DNA of 53,943 nucleotides from a virus. Shown one piece after another: positions 170 through 30,485 of the stretch. Every line of letters begins with the position of its first letter. Position 1 is the first letter of the stretch. Made by a program: the position numbers and the translations under genes. Location of the stretch: the IMG/VR virus record IMGVR_UViG_3300024999_000139, positions 1 through 53,943 of that record. One strand, given 5' to 3'. The notes under the pieces are model-generated. The model was not told where the DNA came from, did not search any database, and saw only the letters and a program-made list of their open reading frames with translations.

Positions 170-1555
170 TTAAATTAATTTTTGAAAGAATTTATAAAGA
201 TTTGTACGTGTAGATTTTTTCATGTCTGATTCTTTACTTAATTTAATATCATCCCAAAATGAATTTTCCATACTAAAGTCAATTTTATCTAAAATCTCTT
301 CAAGTATATCTTCCCACTTTTTAACACCATATAAACGTTCAGATAATGCAATATATCCTGCAAACATATTTTTATGGTTGATATAACTTACCTTCTGAGT
401 TGCTTCAGGATGTTCCATGAATGCTTCAACATTCAATCCAATGATATAATCCATGACATTTGCTATATGCTTTGCAATTGGCCTTATTTGAAGTTTGTTA
501 GTTAGTCTATCCCCATAACACTCTTCGATAGCTGTAACCAAAGTTGACTTCTTTGCCATACCGAAATGTTCAAGTTCGAAATGACCAATTTCTTTGTCAT
601 TATCCTTTATTTGATCTGCAAATTCAGAGGTATCAATATCTTTAATTGCATCCACGACTACATTGCCAAGACTAGCAGTATCCATATTCTTAATATGCTC
701 TTGTTTCATTTTTTGTTGCTTATTGATTTCTACCATATACTTTTGTGCTCTAATCTCACTATAGTTTGTTACAACTAATAACCAATTAAACTGTATGTCA
801 GGGTTAACTGCGAAAGCTAGGCTATTTCCAACTTTCCGGTGAAATCCGTCAACAAGGTTTTTAGTTCCTGAAATAATAGACAGATCACCAGATTTTTCAT
901 CATAATATATTTCATCTGTACCATCTTTAAGAACATTTATTACTATAGTGGTTGGGAATTGATCTCCTGAAAGAACACCATCTCTAATTTCTTTTGCATT
1001 TGTTTTGTTTAAATGTATTCGTTTCATTCCATATACATCAATAATTGGGTCACGTTGCGTCTTAAAATTATAGATAAATTCATTTCCAGCATCTAATTCA
1101 GCAAAATGTTTTCCTGATATATATCCAGAATAAAATCCAGGGGCAATTCTGTTCATTTTAGAAAAAACAATAACTTCGTCTTTTTTATCTACTTTCTTTT
1201 CAAATTTATAATCATTTAAGTTCTCAATTTCAATTTCATTAAAATAATTTTTGGGATCAATTCTTAATATCTCTTCAATTTTCCCCAATGGTTCTTTATC
1301 TTCTGACTCCTTATATGTCAATGCATTATACATACTCATGGTAAAAATAAATAACATTATTAAATCTTTACTTTCATCAATATCTAATGTGGATAATTCT
1401 CTGTTTTTATTTAGAATACCAACTGCCAAACTACCCTTCATATTTCTTTTGTCAAACTCTTCAACAATTATTTTTCTTACCTTGTCGTTCGATGCATATT
1501 CTTTAATTAAAACGTTCAATTCTTGAATTAACTCAACTGATTTTTCTTTTAACAT
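170..1555 (-). CDS. DGQHR/DndB-like protein
   Basis: A 461-residue protein whose central part carries VDGFHRKVGN (about residue 238), close to the DGQHR or ParB-like signature that positions an active-site or nucleic-acid contact in DndB-type and ParB/sulfiredoxin-like proteins. A following stretch (NKQQKMKQEHIKNMD) resembles the helix after that motif in DndB relatives. It has its own TTGACA/TATTAT promoter and an AAGGAG-type ribosome site. No dndCDE or other phosphorothioation genes are visible in the window, so a role in DNA sulfur modification is not supported by context. The family call is from motif recognition only. Confidence 0.6.
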   Translation of the reverse strand: MLKEKSVELIQELNVLIKEYASNDKVRKIIVEEFDKRNMKGSLAVGILNKNRELSTLDIDESKDLIMLFIFTMSMYNALTYKESEDKEPLGKIEEILRIDPKNYFNEIEIENLNDYKFEKKVDKKDEVIVFSKMNRIAPGFYSGYISGKHFAELDAGNEFIYNFKTQRDPIIDVYGMKRIHLNKTNAKEIRDGVLSGDQFPTTIVINVLKDGTDEIYYDEKSGDLSIISGTKNLVDGFHRKVGNSLAFAVNPDIQFNWLLVVTNYSEIRAQKYMVEINKQQKMKQEHIKNMDTASLGNVVVDAIKDIDTSEFADQIKDNDKEIGHFELEHFGMAKKSTLVTAIEECYGDRLTNKLQIRPIAKHIANVMDYIIGLNVEAFMEHPEATQKVSYINHKNMFAGYIALSERLYGVKKWEDILEEILDKIDFSMENSFWDDIKLSKESDMKKSTRTNLYKFFQKLI

Positions 1556-2279: not shown

Positions 2280-2360
2280 TTATTTATTTATTAAAATAGG
2301 AATATTGTCATTTGACATAGGTCGAATGTCATAGCACTTTAGGACTATCTTTATGAGCAT
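2280..2360 (-). CDS. Putative small peptide, 26 aa, coupled to the membrane protein
   Basis: ATG at 2360 follows a near-perfect GGAGGTG site that overlaps the stop codon of the upstream 277-residue membrane protein, the same arrangement as agrD after its paralogue. The peptide starts MLIKIVLK and continues CYDIRPMSNDNIP, so it has a short hydrophobic head, one cysteine and a later proline. It lacks the QPxxP signature of the clear AgrD at 5012-5128. It may be a divergent or truncated signal peptide; translation is inferred from the ribosome site only. Confidence 0.5.
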   Translation of the reverse strand: MLIKIVLKCYDIRPMSNDNIPILINK

Positions 2361-2372
2361 TGTTATCACCTC

Positions 2373-3206
2373 CTACGCATAATAATCTTCTTGACTGGCA
2401 ATATCATCCACATTATCACTATTAATAATATTTTCATAAACCTGCATTTTTTGTTTTTCTTTTGATAAAAAATAATTAATTACAATTAATAACCAAGTAA
2501 TCAAAATTACAGGAGTAGATGTAATTATTACAATAATGATAAATTGGTCAATGAATTGAAAACTAAACAAAATACTTTCACTTTCTATCAGTTTAGCAAT
2601 ATAAGTAATTATTGAAACTACAGACATTATTATCGCAGCAAAACTTCCCATAAAGAATTTACTCTTGATAATAACATCAAATAAATTTACTTTCACTTTG
2701 CCATTTTTCTTCATTATGATAAAAGTTATGATACACGTATAAAGAATTCTTGCAGGTAAACCCAATAGAAAATTATAGAAAAAAACATTATTAAAAAATT
2801 CTTGAGGCTTATGTAATAGTGAAAATATTATTGGACAATATGCATATTCCAATATTCCAGTGATTACAAAACCTGCTAGTGTGTAGATTGCTGTTTTTAG
2901 TATCAAGGGGATACTTATATTGTCGCTATTTTTAATTACTATGTAAATCATTGAAATAATCATTAGTGCCATTGCCGACAATATTACATCTATTTGAGGA
3001 ACAGCAATCACAAATCGTAAAACGCTAACTAATATAGATGTGGGCAAAGTTGCAATTAAAATCCATTTTAAATTTTTCTTCCACATATAGATATCAAAAA
3101 GATTATCTAGTTCTTTTAGGAATGTTAGAGTTATGATTGCGATAAATAATTCTTCAGGTATTCCTACAAATAGCATATTTAATATAGCATTGACAATGGT
3201 CTGCAT
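2373..3206 (-). CDS. Multi-pass membrane protein of the agr-like locus (paralogue 1)
   Basis: 277 residues with about seven hydrophobic segments and a short polar C-terminal tail. It is clearly paralogous to the protein at 5136-5969: shared features are the MQ...NA.L start, IPEELF near residue 17, MWK-NLKWI near residue 42, a NF.L..P.RIL segment near 145-155, and a final helix running into a charged tail (KE.Q....Y.N). The shape recalls the membrane sensor half of AgrC receptors, but there is no histidine kinase or GHKL ATPase domain. The start at 3206 has a GAAAGAAGGA ribosome site. It follows agrB and precedes a coupled 26-residue peptide. Receptor, transporter or immunity roles are all possible. 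Confidence 0.8.
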   Translation of the reverse strand: MQTIVNAILNMLFVGIPEELFIAIITLTFLKELDNLFDIYMWKKNLKWILIATLPTSILVSVLRFVIAVPQIDVILSAMALMIISMIYIVIKNSDNISIPLILKTAIYTLAGFVITGILEYAYCPIIFSLLHKPQEFFNNVFFYNFLLGLPARILYTCIITFIIMKKNGKVKVNLFDVIIKSKFFMGSFAAIIMSVVSIITYIAKLIESESILFSFQFIDQFIIIVIITSTPVILITWLLIVINYFLSKEKQKMQVYENIINSDNVDDIASQEDYYA

Positions 3207-3369
3207 AGGGATTCCTTCTTTCGTTTTTGTTTGATTTGTGGTGGTTGGGACTTATTATGTATTACTGTTGCTGTAAATATATCATAAATCATGGAAAATT
3301 TAATTGAATAAAGTATGACAAATATGGGAGTGGATAGGGGATGCGTGGACTATGAAAGAAAATTATATA

Positions 3370-4008
3370 TTATCTATGTATACTTTGTTCATCTAAGAGA
3401 GAATACAATCCGTAACCAACATTGCTTATCGAGAAAAGTTCTAGTAATAATCCAAAGCAACTTGCAATAATAATTATATTTAGATTAAAGAGTAAGAAAA
3501 TGGTCATTATCATTGCCCATGATATTAAGTAGTATAACGACCATTTTCTGAACTTTGATTTTTCAGAATCTTCTGTAATTGGTTTATTAGGTGTGTCGCG
3601 AGGGACATATTTTAAAATTATATATAGTCCCATCGCTAAACAAAATATAAATAATATTTGCATATCCATGTATGACCAATATTGCAGCGTGTGTTTAACT
3701 ATTAATGCAGATACTATGAATTGAAGGGTAGAAAATGTGATACATTTTGTATAGTCACTAAAATGAAAACCACCTCCAATTATTCTAAAACTACTAAAGG
3801 TTAATGTGATAATCATAGAGGTCATTAAGACTCCAAAGATAGACGCTAACGACACCATTATAAGTCCTTTTATTAATGCTCCTACGATTACCATGAAACC
3901 ATAAGTATAAACCTCAATTTGATCTTCTACAGTTGGATATTTATCATTTGGTACTTTTGTAGCTAATTTTTTAGCAAGATAATTTGATATAAATTCGATA
4001 AAATTCAT
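3370..4008 (-). CDS. agrB: AgrB-type peptide-processing membrane endopeptidase
   Basis: A 212-residue integral membrane protein with the AgrB core: the basic and glycine-rich segment RIIGGGFHFSDYTKC (about residues 76-90) carries the histidine and cysteine expected for the catalytic pair of this cysteine-protease family. AgrB cleaves the C-terminal tail of AgrD-type precursors and closes the macrocycle in the membrane. The length and hydrophobic profile fit AgrB. It lies 24 bases downstream of the MazF-like gene in the operon that starts at the 4902-4931 promoter. The likely substrate gene is agrD at 5012-5128, in the neighbouring operon. Confidence 0.92.
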   Translation of the reverse strand: MNFIEFISNYLAKKLATKVPNDKYPTVEDQIEVYTYGFMVIVGALIKGLIMVSLASIFGVLMTSMIITLTFSSFRIIGGGFHFSDYTKCITFSTLQFIVSALIVKHTLQYWSYMDMQILFIFCLAMGLYIILKYVPRDTPNKPITEDSEKSKFRKWSLYYLISWAMIMTIFLLFNLNIIIIASCFGLLLELFSISNVGYGLYSLLDEQSIHR

Positions 4009-4032
4009 TAAATTATTTAATCTTCCTTTCTT

Positions 4033-4839
4033 TTATCGTGCATAGGCTACCTGCTGACCTGCACTAGAATAATTATTTTGATATTGATTTTGCCTGATTG
4101 ATTTAACTTTATTTAGGTTTTTTAATGCTTCAATTGCTTCTTCTTCATTTACATGTATTTCTAAAACACCCTCCGATTTCATAAGAGCGATTTCAACTTT
4201 TAACATTAGGTTTGGTGGGCATTCCGATACCTTTTGAAACACTCCATTCTTTCCTATTAATCTCCTTTTTGATATTGTGTTTGGTAATTCACAACATATA
4301 ATTGAATCTTGGGGAATTCCGCACTCTTTACTGCTTGCAAAAACGTGAGTAGGCATCTTTGCTTTGGATCTACTGGTCATGGCGATTACGATGGAATTGC
4401 TAGAACACGCATTACCCTTGTTATTTTGAATCACAAGCACCATTCTTGGGCCTCCCACCTCACTATCTATCCCTTTGTCTCCAAAATCTGCGAAACAAAA
4501 ATCACCCCTTCTGACTCGAATATTTTTTATTTGCTCCAAATCATTATTTTCATACAATGAATACCCACATGCTATTTTCAGATCCTGCAATGAAACTCTA
4601 CCTTCTGAATTATTTGCGAAAACATTAAGAGTTTGAACGTTTGGGTAAGCATTTATTTTTTCACGAATAATTAATTCTATGTACCCTCCTTCAATTTTGC
4701 AGTCTGCTCCAAAATTATTAATAGTCCTATGAGTGCCTTTAGCATTCATAATTAAATTGGCTAATTTCTTAAAATCCTTTTTTGTATTTTCCTCAGAGTT
4801 AGTAGTGTTGGTTGATTTAGCAAATAATTTGTTGAACAT
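4033..4839 (-). CDS. MazF/PemK-like protein with N-terminal extension
   Basis: The C-terminal two thirds carry the PemK/MazF fold signature: VRRGDFCFADFG, GGPRMVLVIQNN, then VIAMTSRSKAKMPTHV, which in toxins forms the ribonuclease beta barrel. About 110 N-terminal residues have no obvious match. I prefer the start at 4839 (MFNKLF) because AAAGGATG lies about 10 bases upstream, while the ATG at 4860 has no ribosome site. No MazE-type antitoxin gene is adjacent. The C-terminus ends VAYAR, close to the VAYAN end of the second MazF-like protein. It is first in an operon with agrB. Toxin activity is not established. Confidence 0.8.
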   Translation of the reverse strand: MFNKLFAKSTNTTNSEENTKKDFKKLANLIMNAKGTHRTINNFGADCKIEGGYIELIIREKINAYPNVQTLNVFANNSEGRVSLQDLKIACGYSLYENNDLEQIKNIRVRRGDFCFADFGDKGIDSEVGGPRMVLVIQNNKGNACSSNSIVIAMTSRSKAKMPTHVFASSKECGIPQDSIICCELPNTISKRRLIGKNGVFQKVSECPPNLMLKVEIALMKSEGVLEIHVNEEEAIEALKNLNKVKSIRQNQYQNNYSSAGQQVAYAR

Positions 4840-4901
4840 AATAATGCACATCCTTTTCATATTTAATAAGATATAAATAATTTTCTTTATCTGATAGTAT
4901 T

Positions 4902-4931
4902 ATTATATCCTACTATGTATGAATATGTCAA
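4902..4931 (-). promoter_or_regulatory. Promoter of the mazF-like/agrB operon
   Basis: TTGACA (4931-4926), an 18-base spacer and TATAAT (4907-4902) on the minus strand, both consensus hexamers. It lies between the agrD terminator and the MazF-like gene, so agrB is transcribed separately from agrD. Confidence 0.8.
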
Positions 4932-4969
4932 CACAATTATTGTAATTGTTTATTAATTTATATTATGGT

Positions 4970-4999
4970 TATAGGGAAGAACCGAAGTCCTTCCCTATA
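4970..4999 (-). terminator. Strong hairpin with UUCG tetraloop after agrD
   Basis: A 13-bp stem (one G-U pair) closed by the very stable C(UUCG)G tetraloop in the minus-strand RNA, 12 bases after the agrD stop codon. The tail is A/U rich but not a pure U run. It separates the agrD operon from the next promoter. Confidence 0.8.
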
Positions 5000-5011
5000 T
5001 GTAGGAAATGA

Positions 5012-5128
5012 TTATTTCATGCAACTAGGAGTTTTTGGTTGATAAGAAATAAAATAAGAAGCAAACACGGTGGAGAACATGGAAGTAGCCATACATACAA
5101 CACTTGCAATAATAGCATATTTTTTCAT
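5012..5128 (-). CDS. agrD: AgrD-like cyclic peptide precursor with serine at the ring position
   Basis: A 38-residue precursor: basic/hydrophobic leader (MKKYAIIASVV...), a small-residue region, then ASYFISYQPKTPSCMK. It aligns with clostridial AgrD around the conserved QPxxP of the cleaved tail. The residue that is cysteine in most AgrD rings (for example C-x-x-x-T/S followed by aromatic-Q-P) is serine here, giving a predicted SYFIS ring. Serine rings are known from staphylococcal lactone pheromones. The AGGAGGTG ribosome site overlaps the stop codon of the upstream membrane protein, so translation is coupled. A cysteine remains in the tail (PSCMK). Confidence 0.85.
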   Translation of the reverse strand: MKKYAIIASVVCMATSMFSTVFASYFISYQPKTPSCMK

Positions 5129-5135
5129 TTTGTTT

Positions 5136-5969
5136 TCACCTCCTTTCATCTAAATCTTCTACATCAAGCATTACATCATCTTGCATAACAAGATTTTTGT
5201 AAGTCTGTTGTATTTGTCTTTCTTTAACCAACAAATAATTGATTAATAGTAACATCCAAAATAATATAATAGCAGGAATTACTAATGCACCCATTACGAT
5301 AAAACTTTGTTCAATCATTGATACTTTGTTTTCTAAAATTCTATCAGACCCAATAAGCTTTAAAACATAAATCGCAATAACATTAGACATTATCGTAAAT
5401 GAAATAAAAGAATACAATAAAAATCTATTTTTAGAAATAGTTTCAAATATTTTAATTTCAACGATATTGTTGTGTTGTATAATTAAATATATTACTATTG
5501 AAAATCCTAATATTCTGGACGGAATACTTAATATGAAGTTCCATAAAATATTGGTATTTAAGAAATCAAGAGGTTGATTCATTAAATATAGCATTATTGG
5601 ATAAGTACATCCTTCAAGAAAACCGAACATTATCAGACTAAAAATTATGCATACAAACAGTTTACAATAATCTCTTTTCTTGAATTCAAAACTATTTTTT
5701 CTTATTATATATGTAAATGTGATAATAAATATTATCAATGAACTTAATGAACATGTGACTTTTGGCAATTGTAATATATATTTTGTTGTATTTATATTTA
5801 CAGACATTGACAAAACAGGTATTATAATCCATTTTAAATTTTGCTTCCACATTCTTATGTCTAACATATCAAATCTTTTCAATAATATTAGCGTCATTCC
5901 CGTTAAAAACAATTCTTCTGGTATGCTCACCAAGATCGTGCTCAATAAAGCATTTATTACACCTTGCAT
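5136..5969 (-). CDS. Multi-pass membrane protein of the agr-like locus (paralogue 2)
   Basis: A 277-residue paralogue of the protein at 2373-3206, with about seven hydrophobic segments, IPEELF near residue 17, MWKQNLKWIII near residue 42 and a charged C-terminal tail. I choose the ATG at 5969, not the one six bases upstream: AGAGG then sits eight bases before it, and the N-terminus (MQGVINALL) matches the paralogue. The last codons overlap the agrD ribosome site. It probably acts with the peptide as receptor, exporter or immunity factor; it has no kinase domain. Confidence 0.8.
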   Translation of the reverse strand: MQGVINALLSTILVSIPEELFLTGMTLILLKRFDMLDIRMWKQNLKWIIIPVLSMSVNINTTKYILQLPKVTCSLSSLIIFIITFTYIIRKNSFEFKKRDYCKLFVCIIFSLIMFGFLEGCTYPIMLYLMNQPLDFLNTNILWNFILSIPSRILGFSIVIYLIIQHNNIVEIKIFETISKNRFLLYSFISFTIMSNVIAIYVLKLIGSDRILENKVSMIEQSFIVMGALVIPAIILFWMLLLINYLLVKERQIQQTYKNLVMQDDVMLDVEDLDERR

Positions 5970-6009
5970 ATGCATTGCCTCTTTCTTATCTATTTCTTAA
6001 CCTGTAACG

Positions 6010-6038
6010 AGTATATCATAAGACAAGGTGCAATGCAA
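6010..6038 (-). promoter_or_regulatory. Promoter of the membrane protein-agrD operon
   Basis: TTGCAT (6038-6033), a 17-base spacer and TATACT (6015-6010) on the minus strand, about 40 bases before the start codon. Confidence 0.7.
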
Positions 6039-6050
6039 ACATTATTTTAT

Positions 6051-6671
6051 TTATTGATTTAACATTTTATTCATATGTATTTTACTAATCTCTTTAACTG
6101 AATAATAAACAATTATAAAAACAAATAATCTACATAGCACATCCCCAGGCGACCAAATACTTGTGCCGATATCAAATATGTCAGATAAAAATATTAGATT
6201 TGTTGTATGATCTCCAAGAACATGAAAATCTCCATATTTAGAAGCATTAATAATCATATTATATTGTGTATAACCAGTTGAATAAGATACTGATGGAAAA
6301 ATTGGCATAAGATTATTGTTAAAACTCATTACAATCTTATTCAATGTAAAGCCACACAACAAACTACAACAGGCGATAATATACTCCTTATACTTCTCGT
6401 ACCTAAACAAAACATCAAGTCCTAGAATCATATATGATCCTAATATAGCATTCTTTATTATGTGTTGATATTGAAGAAAATAGTAATTCTGATTCATTAT
6501 TGTGTATTGTAGATAGACGTAAAATATTGACATAAATATTATTGGATAGATACTCCATCTTTTTAATATTGGTTTTATGAGGTATGATTCTTTATGTATT
6601 TGGAGTTTTCCTAGTTTTATGTATAGTTGAATTTTAGAGAATATGAGTGATACTATCAGTGTCTCAACCAA
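6051..6671 (-). CDS. DUF5317-like membrane protein
   Basis: 206 residues with several hydrophobic helices. The C-terminal half shows the pattern I associate with DUF5317: NLMPIFP, GDFHVLGDHTTNLIFLSDIF (near residue 147) and WSPGDVL followed by a last membrane helix. Function unknown. The start is TTG at 6671 with GAGAAGAGGTG seven bases upstream, inside the end of the endonuclease-like gene, giving an eight-base overlap and probable translational coupling. It is followed by the promoter of the agrD operon. Confidence 0.6.
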   Translation of the reverse strand: MVETLIVSLIFSKIQLYIKLGKLQIHKESYLIKPILKRWSIYPIIFMSIFYVYLQYTIMNQNYYFLQYQHIIKNAILGSYMILGLDVLFRYEKYKEYIIACCSLLCGFTLNKIVMSFNNNLMPIFPSVSYSTGYTQYNMIINASKYGDFHVLGDHTTNLIFLSDIFDIGTSIWSPGDVLCRLFVFIIVYYSVKEISKIHMNKMLNQ

Positions 6672-8454
6672 TAGTTAACACCTCTTCTCTTGTCTCTATT
6701 GTATTTATGTATTCATTATAGAACATCCATCTTAAAGGTTCTTCTGTAATTGGATGTTTCCCCATAGACTGTCGTTTATTGTTACAACATTTAGATATAT
6801 TTTGCCTTCTAATATTATATTTACTTGAAGCTTCTGTTTGTGAATCAAATACCTCTCCTGTTGTTAAACATGTTACTTTTTTATTATAATTATGATTTTT
6901 TATATATTCATCATACCATCCTATAGTTTGATTTTTAATTAAATATTCATCGTAAAATATCCATTTAAGTAGTTCTTTTGTGACAGGATGTTTACCACAA
7001 TATTTTTGTTTATTGTAACAACATTGGGATATACCACTATCTTGTATACCATACTTTCTTTTTGCATCTTTTATAGAATTAAATATCTCACCAGTGGTCA
7101 AACACATTACTTTTATACTTAGTTTATTTTTTAATTTTTCTTTGCTTTTTTGTAATTCTTTATTAGGATCGTAATCGCACCAATTTAATTTAGCACCTTG
7201 TTTTAGATATTTTCTAATAGTTGCACTATGTAATTTAAATTTCTTTGATACTTTTGATATGTTGTCAGTTCCATCATCCCACATATTACAAACTAGTTTA
7301 ATAATATTACTACATGCATATTCATGTGCTTTCAACCAATCAATATCTTCCTCTTTAAAGTTTAATAATTTAGGTAATTTACTTTTCATAATACTATTCT
7401 TTATCCATTCTAATTCAGATTTTCTACAATCTATAATTATGTAATTCTTAATATTATTACTCCTAGCCAGCCATTCTTTATCAAAATCATTGTTTTGGAT
7501 ATCTTCTAATGAACCCCAGTTAATACCAACCTCTTCATAATGTTGCAATCCTCCAACTTCGCAAATTCCGTTAATCTTTTTTATATAAAAATCATATCTA
7601 TATTTTCTACACCATTTAAAAGCAGACTTATTTAGTTGCGTTATAAAATCTTTGTTTAATAACTGTTCTAACACATTAAACGTAAATTTTTCTGGATATG
7701 GTATATTGTCTGAACATTTAGGACAAGAAAATCCGTTTATTCTTAATTGACTTATCTCTCTTTTCTTTTCATATCCACAATCTGGACATCGCATAGGCAA
7801 TTTAATTTTTGAAGATCCAGCAGGATATTTTAATGCATCTTCTGGATTAACTAGATATTTAACTAAATGAGGATGAGTTGTAAAAATTGAATTGCATTTA
7901 ATACAATCAAGATTCACTCCACTACAAACATTTGTAAAACTCGATATATTTTTTAACTCTGATCCATGTTCTGGATGCTTCAAACACTTAAACCAATATC
8001 CTTTACCATTCAATCCCCTAGAACTATGACTAACATCTTTTGGAGATAATTTATTTCCATTTTTATCGATATTTAATTCATCGTCCCATCTGTCTAATAT
8101 CCAATCTGCAAATTCTTTAGGTAGATTGTCATAACACCATTGATAAAAAGTAATACTATCTTTTAATTTTGTCTTTCTTGTTTTTTCTCCTCCGAACAAT
8201 TGCATGGTACATTTGTGACAATAATATTTCCCATCATCTTTAACACTTTTTTTATAATTTCTCCATATTATTCCTTCTAATAACTCACCACACCCATCAC
8301 ATTCAACATCAACTTTAACACGAGAATTATTTAATAGGTCATCGATTTTTACTTCGAATTTATCACCCCAGTTAGTAAAAATATATCCTCTTTCTTCATA
8401 CCATTTTTTAGTTGTCCCGTTCCATTCTGTAATACCAATTTTACTTATTAACAC
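6664..8454 (-). CDS. Zinc-ribbon endonuclease-like protein with two NUMOD-type repeats
   Basis: A large modular protein. The N-terminal half has CxxC zinc-ribbon pairs (CDGCGELL...CHKC, CIKC, CPDCGYEKK...CPKC). A central part (YRYDFYIKKINGICEVGGLQHYEE) resembles a Vsr/PD-(D/E)xK-type endonuclease core. It is followed by a helix-turn-helix-like segment (ISKVSKKFKLHSATIRKYL). Two C-terminal repeats (TTGEIFNSIKDAKRKYGI and TTGEVFDSQTEASSKYNI, each followed by IS.CC) are NUMOD1-like DNA-binding modules typical of homing endonucleases. The start is GTG at 8454, nine bases after AAAGGAG. It may be a free-standing mobile endonuclease inserted beside the agr locus. Confidence 0.7.
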   Translation of the reverse strand: MLISKIGITEWNGTTKKWYEERGYIFTNWGDKFEVKIDDLLNNSRVKVDVECDGCGELLEGIIWRNYKKSVKDDGKYYCHKCTMQLFGGEKTRKTKLKDSITFYQWCYDNLPKEFADWILDRWDDELNIDKNGNKLSPKDVSHSSRGLNGKGYWFKCLKHPEHGSELKNISSFTNVCSGVNLDCIKCNSIFTTHPHLVKYLVNPEDALKYPAGSSKIKLPMRCPDCGYEKKREISQLRINGFSCPKCSDNIPYPEKFTFNVLEQLLNKDFITQLNKSAFKWCRKYRYDFYIKKINGICEVGGLQHYEEVGINWGSLEDIQNNDFDKEWLARSNNIKNYIIIDCRKSELEWIKNSIMKSKLPKLLNFKEEDIDWLKAHEYACSNIIKLVCNMWDDGTDNISKVSKKFKLHSATIRKYLKQGAKLNWCDYDPNKELQKSKEKLKNKLSIKVMCLTTGEIFNSIKDAKRKYGIQDSGISQCCYNKQKYCGKHPVTKELLKWIFYDEYLIKNQTIGWYDEYIKNHNYNKKVTCLTTGEVFDSQTEASSKYNIRRQNISKCCNNKRQSMGKHPITEEPLRWMFYNEYINTIETREEVLTIG

Positions 8455-8521
8455 TTGACAAAACTCCTTTGCCAAGTAAAAGATTTATTATTAATAATCA
8501 ATTAAATTATATCTCTCCTTC

Positions 8522-9243: not shown

Positions 9244-9624
9244 TTAATTTGCATAAGCAACTTTATTTCTTATATTATGATTAAACAAACCAAACTGCAC
9301 CATTAAACCTTCTTCTAATTTATTTACAATTAAACTACTGCATACACCTATTTTCTTACTAAAAACCTCTTTCGGAAGCAACATTACTTGTTCGCAAAGT
9401 GCGACTGAATCCTTTAAGAGTCCACTACTAACCATTGGCACAGAAACATGAGTAGGTATCCATTTCTTAAAAACCTTACTGGATAAAGGGATTGCGTGAA
9501 TAACAGGAGAATGTAACAAACTCATATGATTCGAAATAATTATCATTGGTCTTTGACAAATTGTTTGCACTGATCCTCCAACATTATTTTGTACTGTAGC
9601 TAAGTATATATCTCCTCTTTGCAT
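9244..9624 (-). CDS. MazF/PemK-like protein
   Basis: 126 residues, the length of a classical MazF. It has the barrel signature MQRGDIYLATVQ, CQRPMIIISN (conserved RP...I.SN), VIHAIPLSSK and WIPTHVSVP, so a ribonuclease-type fold is likely. The C-terminus is VAYAN. The start codon overlaps a 14-bp inverted repeat whose loop holds the AAAAGGAG ribosome site. No MazE-like gene is adjacent; the following 212-residue gene is the only candidate partner. Confidence 0.85.
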   Translation of the reverse strand: MQRGDIYLATVQNNVGGSVQTICQRPMIIISNHMSLLHSPVIHAIPLSSKVFKKWIPTHVSVPMVSSGLLKDSVALCEQVMLLPKEVFSKKIGVCSSLIVNKLEEGLMVQFGLFNHNIRNKVAYAN

Positions 9625-13280: not shown

Positions 13281-14984
13281 TTAACCCAACCTATAAACTT
13301 CTTTCTCATTAATGACAACAAATTTACTACCTTCTCTAATTAATCTAGATCCATCATTAACCACATCACAAGCAAAATCCTTATAGACATTCTTTTCAAA
13401 CCCAAATCCTCTAATAACCTTATCACTAGGACTAAAAATTACTCCATTACTAAAACATAAATTACCTAAATCAGTAGAATATCTAATAGAATCATTACTA
13501 TAAACTACCTTATTTTTATCAAAAATTAATGTCTTAAAATTAACCTTATCATCCTCAGTAATAAATAACCAATTCTTTTTCGCAACATCATAATGCATCC
13601 CATAATTAATAATTTTGTCATTGTCATTCATTTGATAATTATATCCACTAACATTAACAATTTTAAATCCATCATAATTATTGCATACAAAGTAATTATC
13701 CTTATCATACACCTCAAATATAGCGTTAAAAGACGTTTTAGTAATTGTTCTCAAAGAATTGCCAATATTCCCTACAGTCAATTCAACAAGATTAGAACTT
13801 GAATTGATATAATAAACTACTGAATCTTTAACAATAACTTGACTTTTATTAATCTTCTCAAATATAAATGTGCCTTTTTTATTACTAATACAAATATCTG
13901 TATTTGACACAGTAAAAACATTTTCTCCATCATTTGAGAAATAATATCTATTACCATTAATCAATTTGACTTTCTTTTTTGATCTACTATGAACCACAAA
14001 ATCACTATCATCAATAAATACATCAACACCTAAGACCATTTTTACACCATTTGAGGCAATCAAAACAATGTAAGGTATAGATCCATTAGTAACAACCTTA
14101 GTAGGAGCTTGGATCATTACTGCACTACCATCACATATAGGGCAGGTTTTATATTTTCCATAGTAATAATCGCCATGAGTACTGCAAAGTTTTAAGTTAG
14201 TAATAAAATCTGTTAGATTTTGATCTATTAAAAATCTTTTACCTTGCTCAAAAATACTTCTCATATCTGTAAGTAACTTTGGAGACATAAATTCCCACTT
14301 ATTAATATTCTTTGGCACAATTACCTTAGAATTTTCGATTACTGAAATCCCTTTATTTATCCTTTGAATAATATCCATATCTGGATTAGTTGTACCGCCA
14401 TAGGGGTGAAGTCTTGTCAGCATCTTAAATAATAACACCGCAAAAGAAAATGAATCAGTGTCTTTTGTAAAATTACTTGAAACTAATTTAGGATCTTTAA
14501 ATGTTTCCATACATACAGTACAATTGATATTATCAATAGACCAACTATCTACATCAATAAAATATGGTTCAAAGTCTTTAGTGAATAATATGTTGCTATC
14601 ATTTAAGTCACTGATAAGAATGTTTTGATTGTGTAAAATGGATAGTGTCTCTTTAATTCTTAATGCCAACTTACTAATGTCTTGAATAGTAATATTGTTT
14701 ACTTTTACATATTTCTTGTTTCCTAATTTCTTAACATCTTCACCTTCTGCTTTAGGCATAATATAACCAATGAATTTCTTCTGTGAATCATAGGCAATAT
14801 CAATAGGTTTAATGATATTTGAAGGTAGAGATTTAGTCATTAATAATTTAATCTTTTGTAATTTTTCTTGCTTATTGACGGAATCTTTATAAACTTTGAG
14901 AACATTATCTCCCAAATCATAAATAATTCCTTCTCCGCCTTCGGCTAATGGAGTTTGCTTTAGAATTTTAGCACTTACGTTCAT
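13281..14984 (-). CDS. TerY-P-type protein kinase with C-terminal beta repeats
   Basis: Residues 1 to about 260 form a Hanks-type kinase: glycine loop LAEGGEGIIYDLG (13-25), lysine in VLKVYKD (about 30), catalytic-loop aspartate in ISDLNDSN (the HRDxxxxN equivalent, about 140) and metal aspartate in FIDVDSW (DFG equivalent, about 156). A zinc-ribbon segment (CSTHGDYYYGKYKTCPICDG) follows near residue 270. The last 270 residues are beta-rich, with repeats like a propeller. It is last in a triad after the VWA and PP2C genes and is separated from PP2C by only 11 bases. It probably phosphorylates the VWA protein or partner proteins. Confidence 0.88.
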   Translation of the reverse strand: MNVSAKILKQTPLAEGGEGIIYDLGDNVLKVYKDSVNKQEKLQKIKLLMTKSLPSNIIKPIDIAYDSQKKFIGYIMPKAEGEDVKKLGNKKYVKVNNITIQDISKLALRIKETLSILHNQNILISDLNDSNILFTKDFEPYFIDVDSWSIDNINCTVCMETFKDPKLVSSNFTKDTDSFSFAVLLFKMLTRLHPYGGTTNPDMDIIQRINKGISVIENSKVIVPKNINKWEFMSPKLLTDMRSIFEQGKRFLIDQNLTDFITNLKLCSTHGDYYYGKYKTCPICDGSAVMIQAPTKVVTNGSIPYIVLIASNGVKMVLGVDVFIDDSDFVVHSRSKKKVKLINGNRYYFSNDGENVFTVSNTDICISNKKGTFIFEKINKSQVIVKDSVVYYINSSSNLVELTVGNIGNSLRTITKTSFNAIFEVYDKDNYFVCNNYDGFKIVNVSGYNYQMNDNDKIINYGMHYDVAKKNWLFITEDDKVNFKTLIFDKNKVVYSNDSIRYSTDLGNLCFSNGVIFSPSDKVIRGFGFEKNVYKDFACDVVNDGSRLIREGSKFVVINEKEVYRLG

Positions 14985-14995
14985 TTACTTTCACC

Positions 14996-15622
14996 TCAAA
15001 TTACTATTGAAATGTCATCCTTAAAATATTTATGCTCACGGTTAATTAATCTTCTGATTGCAAATTCTTTTCTTTCTAATAATAGTCTTTCAAATTCTTC
15101 CTTGAATGGACTATTAAGAATGTATTCTAACCCGTCAGAAGCTACTCCTACGGCCTTATATTCGATTTTAGATAGTAAGTGACGTTTAAACTCTACACCG
15201 TCTTTATATTTGCTTAAATGATCTGGTGAAACATAATTATAAGCAAAATATTCAGGTGCATTGCCTTCGCCTATTTTTTCATATTCAATAGAATCATCAT
15301 GTTTTTGTTTTATTATGTAACCATCACCGCAAACATCAACTATATAATCCTCTTTAGTTTCAGATACAATTAACACAGTGAATAACAAATGATTGCGAAC
15401 ATCTTCATATTTAGGGAAAATGTCAGATAACATTCCGAATATATCATCAATTGAATATCTATCTTGTGATAGCAAATGTCCAAATAATTTAGCACCAACT
15501 TCAGAATGCTTTCCTTCAGAACAACCATCCATTACGCATTTATGATCCGAATTTTCAAAACCAAAATCTTGACAATTTAATCCTTTTTCAATATGTTCGT
15601 AACCTATTTTACAAATAAACAT
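14996..15622 (-). CDS. PP2C-family protein phosphatase of the TerY-P triad
   Basis: 208 residues with the PP2C metal-binding aspartates: CVMDGCSEGKHSEVGAKLF (near 30), DVCGDGYII (near 115), VASDGLEYIL (near 160) and the terminal DDISIVI. It is a short, domain-only PP2C that would reverse phosphorylation by the adjacent kinase. The order VWA, PP2C, kinase with tight spacing is the TerY-P arrangement described for bacterial stress/defence islands. Confidence 0.88.
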   Translation of the reverse strand: MFICKIGYEHIEKGLNCQDFGFENSDHKCVMDGCSEGKHSEVGAKLFGHLLSQDRYSIDDIFGMLSDIFPKYEDVRNHLLFTVLIVSETKEDYIVDVCGDGYIIKQKHDDSIEYEKIGEGNAPEYFAYNYVSPDHLSKYKDGVEFKRHLLSKIEYKAVGVASDGLEYILNSPFKEEFERLLLERKEFAIRRLINREHKYFKDDISIVI

Positions 15623-15640
15623 TGTTGCCTCCCATTTAGG

Positions 15641-15676
15641 GAATAGTTCTGCTACTTTATCATAACAGAACTATTC
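15641..15676. repeat. 11-bp hairpin between VWA and PP2C genes
   Basis: Perfect arms GAATAGTTCTG / CAGAACTATTC with a 14-base loop. A T-run follows on the plus strand only. On the transcribed minus strand it lies just upstream of the PP2C ribosome site, so it may tune relative expression or stabilise the downstream RNA. Confidence 0.6.
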
Positions 15677-15688
15677 TTTTTATTTTAA

Positions 15689-16384
15689 TTACATTGTGAA
15701 AGAATCATCTGTCATTGCAAAGAATCCGTCTTGATCTGCAACTACTGATTTTGAACTTTCAATAACCGATTTAGACAGACAATCAAATGCTTTTCGTAAT
15801 TCACTAGCAGAAGAACCAACCTGAAGAATATTTTTGAATTGCATATTCTTTGCTTCTCTCATAGCACTTGAACCAAAGCTGATAAATGCAGTCGTGACCT
15901 CTTTGCTATTTAAGTCTGTGATAACATTCTTTGCCTGACTAACACTATTTCTTGAACTGGTATCTTCTCCATCACTGAATACTGCAAATACAGCTTTAAC
16001 TCTCATACCTTGATTCTTTAGATATGTCATATAATTAACTAATTTCTCTGCTCCATCAACAACTACATCATATAACGGTGTCATCCCATAGACATTGTAT
16101 GCTGTATCAAATTCTTCAATCTTTTTATATCCTCCAATATCAATATTACTGTCATGAAAATTAGCTCTAGCCACTAGCATTTCATCTGATTCTTTACTAT
16201 CGGTTAATGCACTTTTGAACTCTGAAAGATTTTTCTTCATATCTTGAATATATCCACCCATTGAGCCAGATTCATCAATCGCAATAAAGATTAAATTAAT
16301 GTTTTCACTATTAAGATCATCCATTGAAGTATTTTCTTGTTCAATATCATCAAGTCCTAAAATATCCATTGTTTCTACTGTCAT
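15689..16384 (-). CDS. VWA-domain protein of the TerY-P triad
   Basis: A nearly bare von Willebrand A domain with a full MIDAS site: FIAIDESGSMGG (DxSxS), the threonine in YGMTPLYD, and the aspartate in AVFSDGED. It resembles TerY. I prefer the ATG at 16384 (MTVETMD), which has GAGGAAT at correct spacing, over the one 15 bases upstream. It is the first gene of the VWA-PP2C-kinase triad. No TerD or TerC proteins are in the window, so the partners of the triad remain unknown. Confidence 0.88.
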   Translation of the reverse strand: MTVETMDILGLDDIEQENTSMDDLNSENINLIFIAIDESGSMGGYIQDMKKNLSEFKSALTDSKESDEMLVARANFHDSNIDIGGYKKIEEFDTAYNVYGMTPLYDVVVDGAEKLVNYMTYLKNQGMRVKAVFAVFSDGEDTSSRNSVSQAKNVITDLNSKEVTTAFISFGSSAMREAKNMQFKNILQVGSSASELRKAFDCLSKSVIESSKSVVADQDGFFAMTDDSFTM

Positions 16385-16440
16385 TTTAATATTCCTCATT
16401 TCTTATATTTTAGTTTTTAGGTTTATTCATTATTTTTAAA

Positions 16441-17349
16441 TTACAGAACCAAGTCTGTTGATTTTACAATGTTTACTTTATAGATTTTCTTTAATTCATC
16501 ATATCTAATCTTTTTCTGTTCAGGTGTATCCATTACAGAAGACATGCAATCTTCTAAGATATAAACTTTCTTTAAGAGTTTTGGATTACTCTTGTGGAAC
16601 TCTAGTAATTGTTTAATACTTTCATATACACAGAAATCAGAAGCTTGACCAGCGATTACGATCTTATCAAATTTAGCTATTTTATTTAAAACATCTAAGT
16701 TTATAAATCCTTTTTCATCAAATTCAGGGGCGAACAGTCCATACATCTCACTGAAACAATCTGTACCTTTAACAATTCTATTAACCATTGTTTTCTTAGC
16801 AACCGAATGGAAATAAACCATGTTAGCAAACTGATTTTCTAATGCTGCCCCATGAGTTCCTTGAAGGCAATGATAAGGCCAAATTAATAAGTTTTTCTTA
16901 CCTTTTGATTCTAATCCTTCAACATAACGTCTGGAGCGAATTGGATCAACTACTGGAAACCATTTTCCATCATCTAAATCCTTTAGAGTAATTGGTGTGA
17001 ATGGAGTAGGATTAATACCATTTGTATCTACCCACCAACAAGGATGAAAGATTTGGAATGGGTTATGAGTATCAATTGATACTGCAATTTGAGCAATTTT
17101 ATCCATGTTATCATAGATGAATTGTGTGAATCTTGCTGTATCTGCACAACTGCCTTGTACTGCTAAAGCTCCCTGCTCTAAAAAATCATTTTGGATATCA
17201 ATTCCAATTACCAATATTTGCTCTACGTTCTTAGATGCAGGTTGAAGTTTTTCTTGATTTGCTTTTGCAAGAATTTCATTTAAACTACGAGTGTTTTGTG
17301 GTGCTCCAATTGCCTGTACGTCTACAATTTCTTCATAAGATGTTTTCAT
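16441..17349 (-). CDS. Nicotinamidase-like cysteine hydrolase
   Basis: The isochorismatase/nicotinamidase fold is clear: IGIDIQNDFLEQGAL supplies the catalytic aspartate, SIDTHNPFQIFHPCWW the metal ligands typical of nicotinamidases, and AGQASDFCVYESI the nucleophilic cysteine. At about 302 residues it is longer than the usual 180-220, with inserts after the metal site and around CFSEMYGLFAPEF. Nicotinamidase converts nicotinamide to nicotinate for NAD resynthesis. The start at 17349 has a GAAGGAAA site. It is adjacent to a NadM-like adenylyltransferase, which supports a role in NAD salvage. Confidence 0.85.
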   Translation of the reverse strand: MKTSYEEIVDVQAIGAPQNTRSLNEILAKANQEKLQPASKNVEQILVIGIDIQNDFLEQGALAVQGSCADTARFTQFIYDNMDKIAQIAVSIDTHNPFQIFHPCWWVDTNGINPTPFTPITLKDLDDGKWFPVVDPIRSRRYVEGLESKGKKNLLIWPYHCLQGTHGAALENQFANMVYFHSVAKKTMVNRIVKGTDCFSEMYGLFAPEFDEKGFINLDVLNKIAKFDKIVIAGQASDFCVYESIKQLLEFHKSNPKLLKKVYILEDCMSSVMDTPEQKKIRYDELKKIYKVNIVKSTDLVL

Positions 17350-17401
17350 TTTTAAGTTTCCTTCTTTCATAATTTTATTTATTGGTTTAATGGAGTTTAC
17401 A

Positions 17402-17446
17402 TTACTTTGAAATAGTTATGTATATACCTCTTTCCCCATGTTTCAA
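17402..17446 (-). CDS. Possible 14-codon leader peptide
   Basis: In the leader of the nicotinamidase-like gene a TTG codon follows GAAAGGATG at good spacing and reads (M)KHGERGIYITISK before a stop. It may be a regulatory leader or chance. Confidence 0.25.
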   Translation of the reverse strand: MKHGERGIYITISK

Positions 17447-17498
17447 TTCACATCCTTTCAATATCTAAAAAGTTTTACTTGAATTAACTTTATGATTT

Positions 17499-17528
17499 AT
17501 TATACATCGGCATTGAGTAGTTTGTCAA
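17499..17528 (-). promoter_or_regulatory. Promoter of the nicotinamidase-like gene
   Basis: TTGACA (17528-17523), 18 bases, TATAAT (17504-17499) on the minus strand. The untranslated leader to the start at 17349 is about 140 bases, long enough for regulation, though I recognise no known riboswitch. Confidence 0.75.
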
Positions 17529-17544
17529 GTATTTATTTTATGAT

Positions 17545-18096
17545 TTAATTCTCCTTATAATATGTACAATTCATCAACTCTAAACGTAAATCATAAAAAT
17601 ATTTATGCAATTCTAAACTATGATAATCACACCATTTCAACCAATTATTACTTACCATTAACTTTCTTAGTTCAGTTGCGGATATGGGTATTTCAGAACG
17701 AGGTACAACAATTTCCATAATATCTTTTATATCTTCTGGAGCAAACCACCCTGACCTAGATTCATCATTTCCATAAATCATAACATCTGGATTCTTTCCG
17801 ATAATATCATGAACTTTATCAAGTAAATATTTGCCCCATTCTTCCGAAATATCATCTTCGCTTGTTAAGTCTGGTAATCCACAAACAATAACATTATCAT
17901 CATGATAAATTTCCTTAATCATTTTAATTCTTGTTTCTACAGAAAATGGATTTCGCAATGTACCATTTTCTTGAGCAGAACCTACAAGAATTAATAATCT
18001 ATCACACATGGTCAATGCTAAATCTGCAAGTGATTTATGACCTATATGAAATACATTAAAACGACCTACTAGCAAACCTACATCATATTTTTTCAT
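17545..18096 (-). CDS. nadM: NadM-type nicotinamide-nucleotide adenylyltransferase
   Basis: 183 residues of the nucleotidyltransferase fold: GLLVGRFNVFHIGHKSL carries the HxGH motif, and SEIPISATELRKLM matches the C-terminal ISxTxxR motif. The enzyme joins NMN (or nicotinate mononucleotide) and ATP to give NAD or its deamido form. The bifunctional phage/bacterial forms often add a Nudix domain; none is present here. It has its own promoter at 18147-18175 and lies next to the nicotinamidase-like gene, so the pair probably rebuilds NAD during infection. Confidence 0.9.
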   Translation of the reverse strand: MKKYDVGLLVGRFNVFHIGHKSLADLALTMCDRLLILVGSAQENGTLRNPFSVETRIKMIKEIYHDDNVIVCGLPDLTSEDDISEEWGKYLLDKVHDIIGKNPDVMIYGNDESRSGWFAPEDIKDIMEIVVPRSEIPISATELRKLMVSNNWLKWCDYHSLELHKYFYDLRLELMNCTYYKEN

Positions 18097-23297: not shown

Positions 23298-23474
23298 TTA
23301 CAAATACTTCTCAATATAGTTTCTATCCTGTGTAAAAATAGGGATATCCTCATCAACCACCCATCTACTACGCATAACTCCGTCTTTATCATATTGCTCT
23401 TTTATAATACATACACCACGTTTTTGATATGTTGGTAAATCATTGAAATTAATTTCTTTCTCTTGAAATAACAT
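23298..23474 (-). pseudogene. C-terminal part of the Thg1-like gene after an in-frame stop
   Basis: This 58-codon frame begins at an ATG directly after the TAA at 23477-23475 and continues in the same frame as the upstream gene: MLFQEKEINFNDLPTYQKRG, CIIKEQYDKDG, SRWVVDEDIPIF. These segments are what normally follows NQIQ in Thg1-like proteins, so the two parts are one interrupted gene. The TAAATG junction could allow reinitiation, giving two polypeptides, or the stop could be read through; a nonsense mutation or sequencing error is the simplest reading. Confidence 0.7.
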
Positions 23475-24059
23475 TTATTGAATTTGATTGCAGGTTTTAT
23501 TTTGTAGTTGTTTGTGACTAAAGTTTGCCTGACCAACCATTTGTATAGCATTCCTAGTTGCGTCTTGTTGTCTCCAAATAAACGCATTGCACACTTCTTC
23601 TTTAGGAATATTATAGACTCTACTATCAAACATAGCAGTATTAAACCTTTTTGCATATTTATTAAAAGTCTCATTTGTATCTGATATCTCATTACTATTA
23701 ACTCGAAAAGCATTATTGAAAGCCATCGTTGCCATACTTGCAGATACAGAAACGATCTTTTGCACGTTTTTATCAAACCATGCTTGAGTTGTAAGAGTAT
23801 CATAATCAGTGAGCAGTAAAGTAATTTCATCGCTTTGGATATAAGCAATTTTACATCCCATAACATTTTCACAAAGATATTTTGCGGTGTCCCACATTGT
23901 TTTCATTAATACCATATCAAATGGTTTTTTAAATCCTTTAGTGAACGAGTGGAACGCTTTACCATCCAGACGAATTAAAGTTGGCATTCTTTTAGTTAGA
24001 TATCGTCTTTCAATATTTTCATAACCCTTCATGCGGTCTCCAAGATCATCTTTACTCAT
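23475..24059 (-). CDS. Thg1-like 3'-5' tRNA polymerase, N-terminal catalytic part
   Basis: 194 residues of the tRNA-His guanylyltransferase family: TLIRLDGKAFHSFTKGF carries the RxDGxxF metal site and YIQSDEITLLL the second metal aspartate and glutamate. WRQQDATRNAIQ and the SHKQLQNKTCNQIQ end are also family-typical. The frame stops at TAA where homologues continue (see the next entry), so the C-terminal 58 residues are detached. Thg1-like enzymes add nucleotides to tRNA 5' ends and can repair truncated tRNA. That fits the RNA-repair protein encoded nearby at 18202-20394. Confidence 0.88.
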   Translation of the reverse strand: MSKDDLGDRMKGYENIERRYLTKRMPTLIRLDGKAFHSFTKGFKKPFDMVLMKTMWDTAKYLCENVMGCKIAYIQSDEITLLLTDYDTLTTQAWFDKNVQKIVSVSASMATMAFNNAFRVNSNEISDTNETFNKYAKRFNTAMFDSRVYNIPKEEVCNAFIWRQQDATRNAIQMVGQANFSHKQLQNKTCNQIQ

Positions 24060-30284: not shown

Positions 30285-30485
30285 TTAACTAAACAAATCT
30301 TCAACTTTGCAATATAATACATCATCCTTATACAATTTATCTTCAACCACTTTTACAGATGTTGAAAATCCTCCTCTCAAAGATATTAAGCACTCATCTC
30401 CATCAATATATTTAGATACAACAACTGCTCTTATTCCTTGTGCAGATATAAACCTTTCAACTATTTTCTCAAAACCAATAATCAT
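30285..30485 (-). CDS. Small hypothetical protein, 66 aa
   Basis: MIIGFEKIVERFISAQG followed by beta strands. Overlaps the uvsE stop by four bases, so it is translationally coupled to it. No family recognised. Confidence 0.6.
   Translation of the reverse strand: MIIGFEKIVERFISAQGIRAVVVSKYIDGDECLISLRGGFSTSVKVVEDKLYKDDVLYCKVEDLFS

What the first reader, a model, noticed from the sequence alone, without database searches (positions are those of the whole stretch)
2280..6671. Agr-like locus built from membrane protein-peptide pairs instead of AgrC/AgrA
Seen: two paralogous seven-helix proteins without kinase domains, each overlapping the ribosome site of a short downstream peptide gene, plus one AgrB and no response regulator. 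Inference: a signalling or peptide-immunity module of unknown wiring, possibly a density sensor for a phage or plasmid.
Basis: partly seen in the sequence, partly recalled or inferred. Interest (0 to 1): 0.85.

Follow-up and report, generated by a model that had tools for sequence, protein, structure and literature searches.

The report
Kinase-less Agr signalling module in phage
A virus of Clostridia-type bacteria (related to the phages that 'vote' on killing or sparing their hosts) carries a bacterial-style cyclic-peptide messaging system whose receptor lacks its usual enzyme part and sits beside a DNA-binding toxin fusion, exactly where its cousins keep their own messaging genes.

Summary
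The locus is real and more interesting than described, but one of the two 'peptide pairs' is not. Window 2373-6671(-) encodes DUF5317, a seven-helix protein (7TM-A) overlapping the ribosome site of an AgrD-type precursor, a helix-turn-helix-MazF fusion, AgrB, and a second seven-helix protein (7TM-B). AgrD follows 7TM-A in 9/9 related phage records and 30/33 bacterial copies. No member of the family carries a kinase, but profile comparison shows they are the membrane sensor domain of clostridial AgrC kinases. The second 'peptide' (2280-2354) is broken in one sister phage and absent in another; 7TM-B is an orphan in 4/4. In bacterial chromosomes an XRE regulator commonly sits beside the 7TM-AgrD pair; in the phages an HTH domain fused to MazF takes that place. 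The phages are SPbeta-like, and the module lies directly upstream of homologues of yopQ and yopR/mrpR, the position of arbitrium (AimR-AimP-AimX), which itself acts through host MazF. Best reading: an Agr-type density sensor without phosphorelay that sets lysis-lysogeny through a phage-encoded HTH-MazF. Parts and position are shown; receptor-to-HTH wiring and outcome are inferred. I found no description of this wiring or placement.

The parts
6051..6671 (-). DUF5317 membrane protein, 206 aa, first gene of the module
   Evidence: Pfam PF17248 E 4e-17; same place in L003, L004, L005, L015, L019, L021
5136..5975 (-). 7TM-A: kinase-less AgrC-type sensor domain, candidate receptor of the locus's own peptide
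   Evidence: AF2 seven long helices, pLDDT 86.8; hhalign to N-terminal domains of AgrC-type kinases Prob 96.4, E 1e-9, 183 columns; AgrB control 0.4; among the fastest-changing proteins of the module (38-70%)
5012..5128 (-). AgrD-type precursor MKKYAIIASVVCMATSMFSTVFASYFISYQPKTPSCMK; predicted five-residue Ser lactone S-Y-F-I-S
   Evidence: TIGR04223 16.6 bits, cut-off 19; sister copies pass; invariant leader and QPKxPxCMK tail around a variable core
4970..4999 (-). 12-13 bp hairpin directly after agrD
   Evidence: present in all eight phage loci aligned; 92% of pair cells kept, no two-sided compensatory change
4902..4931 (-). promoter-like TTGACA-N18-TATAAT ahead of the HTH-MazF gene
   Evidence: direct reading; exact consensus in L004 too, close in L015 and L019
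4033..4860 (-). HTH (XRE-like) - MazF/PemK fusion, 275 aa (probable start 4836); candidate output of the system
   Evidence: PemK E 1e-17; MazF fold, about 40% to solved MazF; Arg and Thr of the MazF site kept; HTH: phrog_18248 E 1e-4 in a sister, five helices, CI/LexA/HipB/XRE structural matches
3370..4008 (-). AgrB, maturation peptidase/exporter
   Evidence: Pfam AgrB E 4e-36; GG-x-H-x6-C conserved in four phages
2373..3206 (-). 7TM-B: orphan second receptor-like paralogue without a peptide
   Evidence: 74-84% conserved among sisters, own clade 99*, followed by no AgrD in 4/4
   Evidence: frame broken after two codons in L005, sequence absent in L004
1706..2104 (-). small ORF (132 aa) between 7TM-B and the yopQ homologue, with counterparts in sister phages
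170..1555 (-). homologue of SPbeta/phi3T YopQ; in sister phages the next gene is the YopR/MrpR homologue (beyond the end of this contig)
   Evidence: E 1e-17 to phi3T_96; phrog_5732 E 6e-58; YopR: L003 E 6e-13, six of nine records
9244..9624 (-). second, free-standing MazF, upstream of the module in six sister records too
   Evidence: phrog_1936 E 3e-19; shares the C-terminal -VAYA(N/R) tail with the fusion

Best explanation
This is a phage-encoded Agr-type communication module that works without a phosphorelay and replaces arbitrium in SPbeta-like phages of Clostridia-like hosts. AgrB cuts and exports AgrD as a small Ser-lactone autoinducing peptide (predicted ring S-Y-F-I-S). 7TM-A, the sensor domain of AgrC without its kinase, binds the peptide outside. 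Instead of phosphorylating AgrA it changes the activity or location of the HTH-MazF fusion made from the neighbouring transcription unit, much as chromosomal relatives of 7TM-A are probably coupled to the XRE regulator beside them. MazF action on transcripts, or HTH binding near the yopQ-yopR (master repressor) operon, then shifts the phage towards lysogeny as peptide accumulates. 7TM-B is a second, more conserved receptor without its own signal. Shown: gene content, homologies, pairing, position and conservation. Inferred: peptide structure, peptide-receptor match, receptor-to-HTH coupling, and the direction of the decision.
For: AgrB and AgrD by profile with catalytic H and C. 7TM homologous to AgrC sensor domains (control); two of the matching kinases, L089 and L090, themselves sit beside agrB and agrD. 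7TM-AgrD pairing in 9/9 phage and 30/33 bacterial copies, with no kinase in the family proper. XRE gene within 2.5 kb in 19/33 against about 4% expected; the phage counterpart is an HTH-MazF fusion. Variable AgrD core together with a fast-changing middle of 7TM-A (29-44% over columns 61-240) while 7TM-B stays at 66-96% there: the pattern expected of a peptide-receptor specificity pair. SPbeta-like genome; module directly upstream of yopQ-yopR homologues, where phi3T has aimR-aimP-aimX; no AimR found. Arbitrium acts through MazF and the yopMNOPQR operon (PMC10769878, PMC10516654). A Ser-lactone AgrD pentapeptide was detected by LC-MS/MS in C. thermocellum, with no AgrC or AgrA identified (PMC5322536).
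Against: No experiment. Sequence support for the HTH domain is modest (Pfam silent; hhalign Prob 17.6, E 0.0014 against shuffles 0.3-0.8). No tool shows contact between 7TM and the HTH protein. Fourteen of 33 bacterial copies have no XRE gene within 2.5 kb by this test, and the copies are not independent. In L021 AgrB lies elsewhere in the module and AgrD is divergent. The nine phage records share ancestry, so the shared position is one observation rather than nine. The empty AimR search is weak. The window itself ends before yopR.
Confidence: 0.6

Rival explanations
1. Host manipulation: AgrB and AgrD make a peptide aimed at the host's own Agr receptors, and 7TM-A/7TM-B are kinase-less decoys that bind peptide and blunt host signalling. 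The HTH-MazF fusion is a separate gene.
For: Likely hosts encode several AgrB systems; kinase-less sensor domains could act as sinks; phage agr genes without a response regulator are known in phiCDHM1 (PMC3901668).
Against: Stand-alone 7TM-AgrD pairs are also ordinary chromosomal genes with an adjacent XRE regulator, which a decoy does not explain; HTH-MazF stays in the module in all nine records.
Confidence: 0.15
2. Density-gated defence or superinfection exclusion: the peptide signals prophage density and releases HTH-MazF to abort infection by competing phages; it is not the lysis-lysogeny switch.
For: MazF toxins are used in abortive infection (discussed in PMC10516654); two MazF proteins per phage share a tail; nearby kinase-like and PP2C-like genes in the window could be a defence cassette.
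Against: Position next to yopQ-yopR lysogeny genes; no cognate MazE antitoxin seen next to either MazF.
Confidence: 0.13
3. Split AgrC: 7TM supplies the sensor domain and pairs with a separate GHKL kinase encoded by the host.
For: 7TM is homologous to the membrane domain of AgrC-type kinases; hosts carry other agr loci.
Against: No kinase gene recurs next to the 7TM copies inspected and no LytTR gene above cut-off in the phage records; an XRE gene is the recurrent neighbour.
Confidence: 0.08

Closest known systems
agr quorum sensing (AgrBDCA; Staphylococcus and Clostridia)
   Same: AgrB with conserved H and C, AgrD-type precursor, receptor domain homologous to the AgrC sensor of clostridial kinases, variable peptide core with fast-changing receptor
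   Different: no kinase, no AgrA/LytTR; an HTH-MazF fusion (phage) or XRE regulator (chromosome) is the neighbour instead
Arbitrium (AimR-AimP-AimX) of SPbeta/phi3T
   Same: peptide communication genes directly upstream of the yopQ-yopR/mrpR region in SPbeta-like phages; link to MazF (PMC10769878)
   Different: exported cyclic AgrD-type peptide, membrane receptor and dedicated AgrB instead of a linear AimP taken up and bound by cytoplasmic AimR; MazF is encoded by the phage and fused to an HTH
phiCDHM1 agr3 (agrC-agrB-agrD in a C. difficile phage, PMC3901668)
   Same: phage-borne agr genes without a response regulator
   Different: phiCDHM1 AgrC has a HATPase domain and, per its authors, no identified receptor domain: the reverse of 7TM-A; different phage, no HTH-MazF reported
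AgrD lactone pentapeptide of Clostridium thermocellum (PMC5322536)
   Same: five-residue Ser lactone from an AgrD without identified AgrC/AgrA, in a relative of the chromosomal 7TM carriers
   Different: no phage; receptor unknown; whether it has a 7TM partner was not tested
MazEF/PemIK toxin-antitoxin
   Same: MazF fold with the catalytic Arg and Thr
   Different: no adjacent MazE; N-terminal HTH fusion; placed inside a signalling operon

Membership tests
agr (AgrBDCA) | AgrB peptidase with catalytic His and Cys | tested here: met
agr (AgrBDCA) | AgrD precursor matching TIGR04223 | tested here: inconclusive
   window copy 16.6 bits, below the cut-off of 19; six of six sister phage and four of four chromosomal copies scanned pass
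agr (AgrBDCA) | AgrC: sensor domain joined to a GHKL histidine kinase | tested here: not met
   sensor domain present by homology, kinase absent in all family members
agr (AgrBDCA) | AgrA response regulator (LytTR) | tested here: not met
   none above cut-off in nine phage records; records may be fragments
Arbitrium | AimR receptor | tested here: not met
   no match to phi3T AimR in nine records (an empty answer is weak)
Arbitrium | location directly upstream of the yopQ-yopR lysogeny genes | tested here: met
Arbitrium | peptide-dependent control of lysis-lysogeny | not testable with these tools
   needs phage and host in culture
SPbeta-like phages | shared core genes (yopQ, yopR, replication, tail, YokA-type recombinase) | tested here: met
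   166-kb relative G836: 17 ORFs match phi3T including yopQ, yopR, yorJ, yorL, YonF/G/J and YokA; window: YopQ and YoqJ homologues and an RNA ligase 47% identical to SPbetaL phages
MazF/PemK toxins | MazF fold with catalytic Arg and Thr | tested here: met
   (Arg in 9/9, Thr in 8/9 copies)
MazEF toxin-antitoxin | adjacent MazE-type antitoxin | tested here: not met
   none among the neighbouring ORFs scanned; a MazE-type AbrB fold was seen only in a SpoVT-like gene about 32 kb away

The most novel reading that the evidence does not exclude
A previously undescribed mode of cyclic-peptide quorum sensing, recurrent in Acetivibrionales and Peptococcales: a kinase-less AgrC receptor signals to a cytoplasmic XRE regulator without phosphorylation, and clostridial SPbeta-like phages have taken it up as a functional replacement of arbitrium with a phage-encoded HTH-MazF as the output.
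Probability: 0.5. Interest if true: 0.93.

Novelty: new variant of a known kind. Interest (0 to 1): 0.84.

Why it matters
Arbitrium is known from Bacillus phages and uses a linear peptide read inside the cell. Here, in the same genomic slot of related phages from another class of hosts, sits an unrelated messaging system with a surface receptor, and its neighbour is again MazF, the toxin that arbitrium was shown to control. If the function matches, phages have built the same decision circuit twice from different parts. It would also give orphan AgrD peptides, such as the C. thermocellum lactone, a candidate receptor class, and show that Agr receptors can work without a kinase.

Tried and rejected
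(1) Second peptide after 7TM-B: rejected. (2) 7TM as a CAAX-type protease, from a weak Pfam hit at E 0.69: rejected, not seen for the paralogue. (3) Known fold for 7TM: no PDB match (best E 2.3), so its identity rests on profile homology to AgrC. (4) Terminase PF03237 as a phage marker: nothing above cut-off; phage identity came from phi3T homologues instead. (5) Covariation in the hairpin after agrD: helix kept but no two-sided changes; two earlier structure strings were misplaced. (6) A scan of viral contigs with a single AgrB sequence found nothing; the 7TM alignment worked. (7) My first count of AgrD neighbours missed variants such as QPVTP and QPATP and counted one spurious ORF in L065; corrected by reading the gaps. 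(8) YopP as the identity of the integrase-like neighbour: rejected in favour of YopR.
Full report
WHAT IS THERE. The window is an IMG/VR virus record of 53,943 bases. On the minus strand, in transcription order: a free-standing MazF (9244-9624), two further ORFs including an endonuclease-like one (6664-8475), then the module: DUF5317 (6051-6671), 7TM-A (5136-5975), agrD (5012-5128), a hairpin (4970-4999), a promoter-like site (4902-4931), HTH-MazF (4033-4860), agrB (3370-4008), 7TM-B (2373-3206); then a small ORF and a YopQ homologue (170-1555). AgrB is clear (E 4e-36). AgrD scores just below the curated cut-off here but above it in six of six scanned sister phages.

RELATIVES IN PHAGES. Scans of viral contigs with single sequences and with an alignment gave eight further records (L003, L004, L005, L014, L015, L019, L020, L021). 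All nine records carry 7TM-A, AgrD, HTH-MazF and AgrB together. The order is constant except in L021, where AgrB lies upstream. AgrD has an invariant leader and QPKxPxCMK tail in the close sisters around a variable core: ASYFISY, ASWLGAH, ASWLFSH, ASMFFSH, ASWFFAH, ASWFWLY, ASLMWLH, ASAMWSY, and a divergent copy in L021. Ser replaces the usual Cys in all, which predicts a lactone ring; a five-residue Ser lactone of this type was detected in C. thermocellum (PMC5322536). 7TM-A is among the fastest-changing proteins of the module: 38-70% identity among four sisters, only 29-44% over columns 61-240, against 74-84% for 7TM-B, 65-87% for DUF5317 and 59-82% for HTH-MazF (the upstream MazF and the L004 YopQ homologue vary at least as much). 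This is the pattern of a signal-receptor pair diverging in specificity, with 7TM-B outside that race. The phage 7TM proteins form one clade (99*), with 7TM-B a sub-clade (99*).

RELATIVES IN BACTERIA. A genome-contig scan gave eight loci; profile searches over whole genomes gave 19 of 58 genomes in the order of R. hungatei (Acetivibrionales by my reading of GTDB), 6 of 391 in the class, 2 of 25 in the order of a Peptococcaceae genome. Neighbourhoods of 33 copies: none is fused to a kinase (open frames at most 354 aa); 30 are followed directly by an AgrD (27 by motif, plus L062 twice and L065 on reading the gaps; exceptions: the first of two tandem copies in L007, L061, L063); 19 have an XRE-type regulator within 2.5 kb, most of them about 200-250 bp downstream on the opposite strand. 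Six of these genomes carry 24-40 HTH_3 genes each, so about 4% would be expected by chance (binomial 3e-18 if independent, which they are not). AgrB is next door in 9 of 33 and is encoded in all 14 genomes checked.

WHAT 7TM IS. In a search over the phylum, weak hits included open frames of 448-530 aa; the four I read (L086, L088, L089, L090) look like GHKL-type kinases, and two of them (L089, L090) sit next to agrB and agrD. Profile-profile comparison of the 7TM family with the N-terminal membrane domains of these four gives probability 96.4, E 1e-9 over 183 columns; the same comparison with AgrB gives 0.4. The 7TM proteins are therefore AgrC sensor domains without a kinase. Whether the kinase was lost or never gained is open: the tree places kinases on long branches.

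WHAT THE FUSION IS. The C-terminal part is a MazF by sequence and fold (about 40% to solved Bacillus MazF) with the catalytic Arg kept in nine and the Thr in eight of nine copies. The N-terminal 70 residues form five helices at high confidence; support for an XRE-type HTH comes from phrog_18248 'transcriptional regulator' (E 1e-4 in L015), structural matches to LexA/CI/HipB/XRE proteins, and a weak profile match in register. Pfam does not see it. In each of seven phages, among ORFs of 60 aa or more in the stretches scanned (the whole contig in one case), a C-terminal -[VIM]-x-[YF]-A tail occurs only on the two MazF-family proteins, which suggests a common control such as proteolysis; this is inference.

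WHERE IT SITS. The 730-aa RNA ligase of the window is 47% identical to SPbetaL-phage proteins and the 461-aa protein at 170-1555 matches phi3T_96 = YopQ (E 1e-17). In the sister loci the next gene matches phi3T_97 = YopR/MrpR (E 6e-13 in L003, against 0.68 for YopP), found once each in six of nine records beside the module. The 166-kb relative G836 shares 17 ORFs with phi3T, including replication, structural and YokA-type recombinase genes. In phi3T the order is aimR-aimP-aimX-92-93-94-yopP-yopQ-yopR. The Agr-type module thus stands where arbitrium stands. Published work shows that phi3T arbitrium controls lysis-lysogeny by acting on host MazF (AimX and YosL inhibit it; phi3T_93 frees it from MazE), and that MrpR is the master repressor of SPbeta encoded in the yopMNOPQR operon (PMC10769878, PMC10516654). 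Finding a phage-encoded HTH-MazF inside the Agr-type module at this place is the strongest hint to function.

MECHANISM AND CONFIDENCE. Peptide made by AgrB/AgrD and sensed by 7TM-A: about 0.85. Output through HTH-MazF: about 0.6. Role in lysis-lysogeny: about 0.6. Direction (more peptide, more lysogeny) is by analogy with arbitrium only. A hairpin closes the 7TM-A/agrD unit and a separate promoter-like site starts HTH-MazF-agrB(-7TM-B), so the two halves can be regulated apart.

NOVELTY. Searches of open full texts returned phiCDHM1 (whose AgrC has a HATPase domain and no identified receptor domain) and reviews, but no kinase-less AgrC-XRE system and no Agr module in the arbitrium place. One review (PMC11945551) says in passing that SPbeta-like phages carry agr homologues; one of the two references printed for this concerns Listeria AgrA, the other I did not trace. 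Subscription papers and most preprints are outside that library, so the claim of novelty is provisional.

Noticed in passing
window 9244-9624 and 4033-4860; L003, L004, L005, L014, L015, L019: Both MazF-family proteins of each of seven phages end in the same -[VIM]-x-[YF]-A(N/R) tail, found on no other ORF of 60 aa or more in the stretches scanned, including a whole 166-kb relative: possibly a shared degradation tag or partner-binding tail.
   Followed up: partly
window 36572-37093 and 32940-33662: Phage-encoded SpoVT-like regulator (SpoVT_C E 6e-34, with a MazE-type AbrB domain) and a sigma-70 family factor (phrog_351), suggestive of interplay with host sporulation.
   Followed up: partly
window 13281-16399: Row of a Ser/Thr protein kinase-like gene, a PP2C-like gene and a third gene that by eye looks von Willebrand-like (no Pfam hit); possibly a defence or stress cassette.
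   Followed up: no
window 16441-18096: A protein that looks nicotinamidase-like by eye (no Pfam hit) next to a nicotinamide-nucleotide adenylyltransferase-like protein (phrog_3462): a possible NAD salvage pair.
   Followed up: no
window 23402-24059: tRNA-His guanylyltransferase (Thg1, Pfam E 3e-30) overlapped by a second open frame; perhaps a frameshift.
   Followed up: no
window 30482-31363: UV-damage endonuclease UvdE (E 5e-68) encoded by the phage.
   Followed up: no
L008, L056, L057, L058 (genome G003, Anaerobacterium chartisolvens): One genome carries four distinct 7TM-AgrD pairs, each with a different peptide core: several parallel channels in one cell.
   Followed up: partly
L070 (G032), L071 (G066): In one 7TM sub-clade AgrB is divergent from the pair and the AgrD leader is unusual (KCMLMIYQPKVPKVLR).
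   Followed up: no
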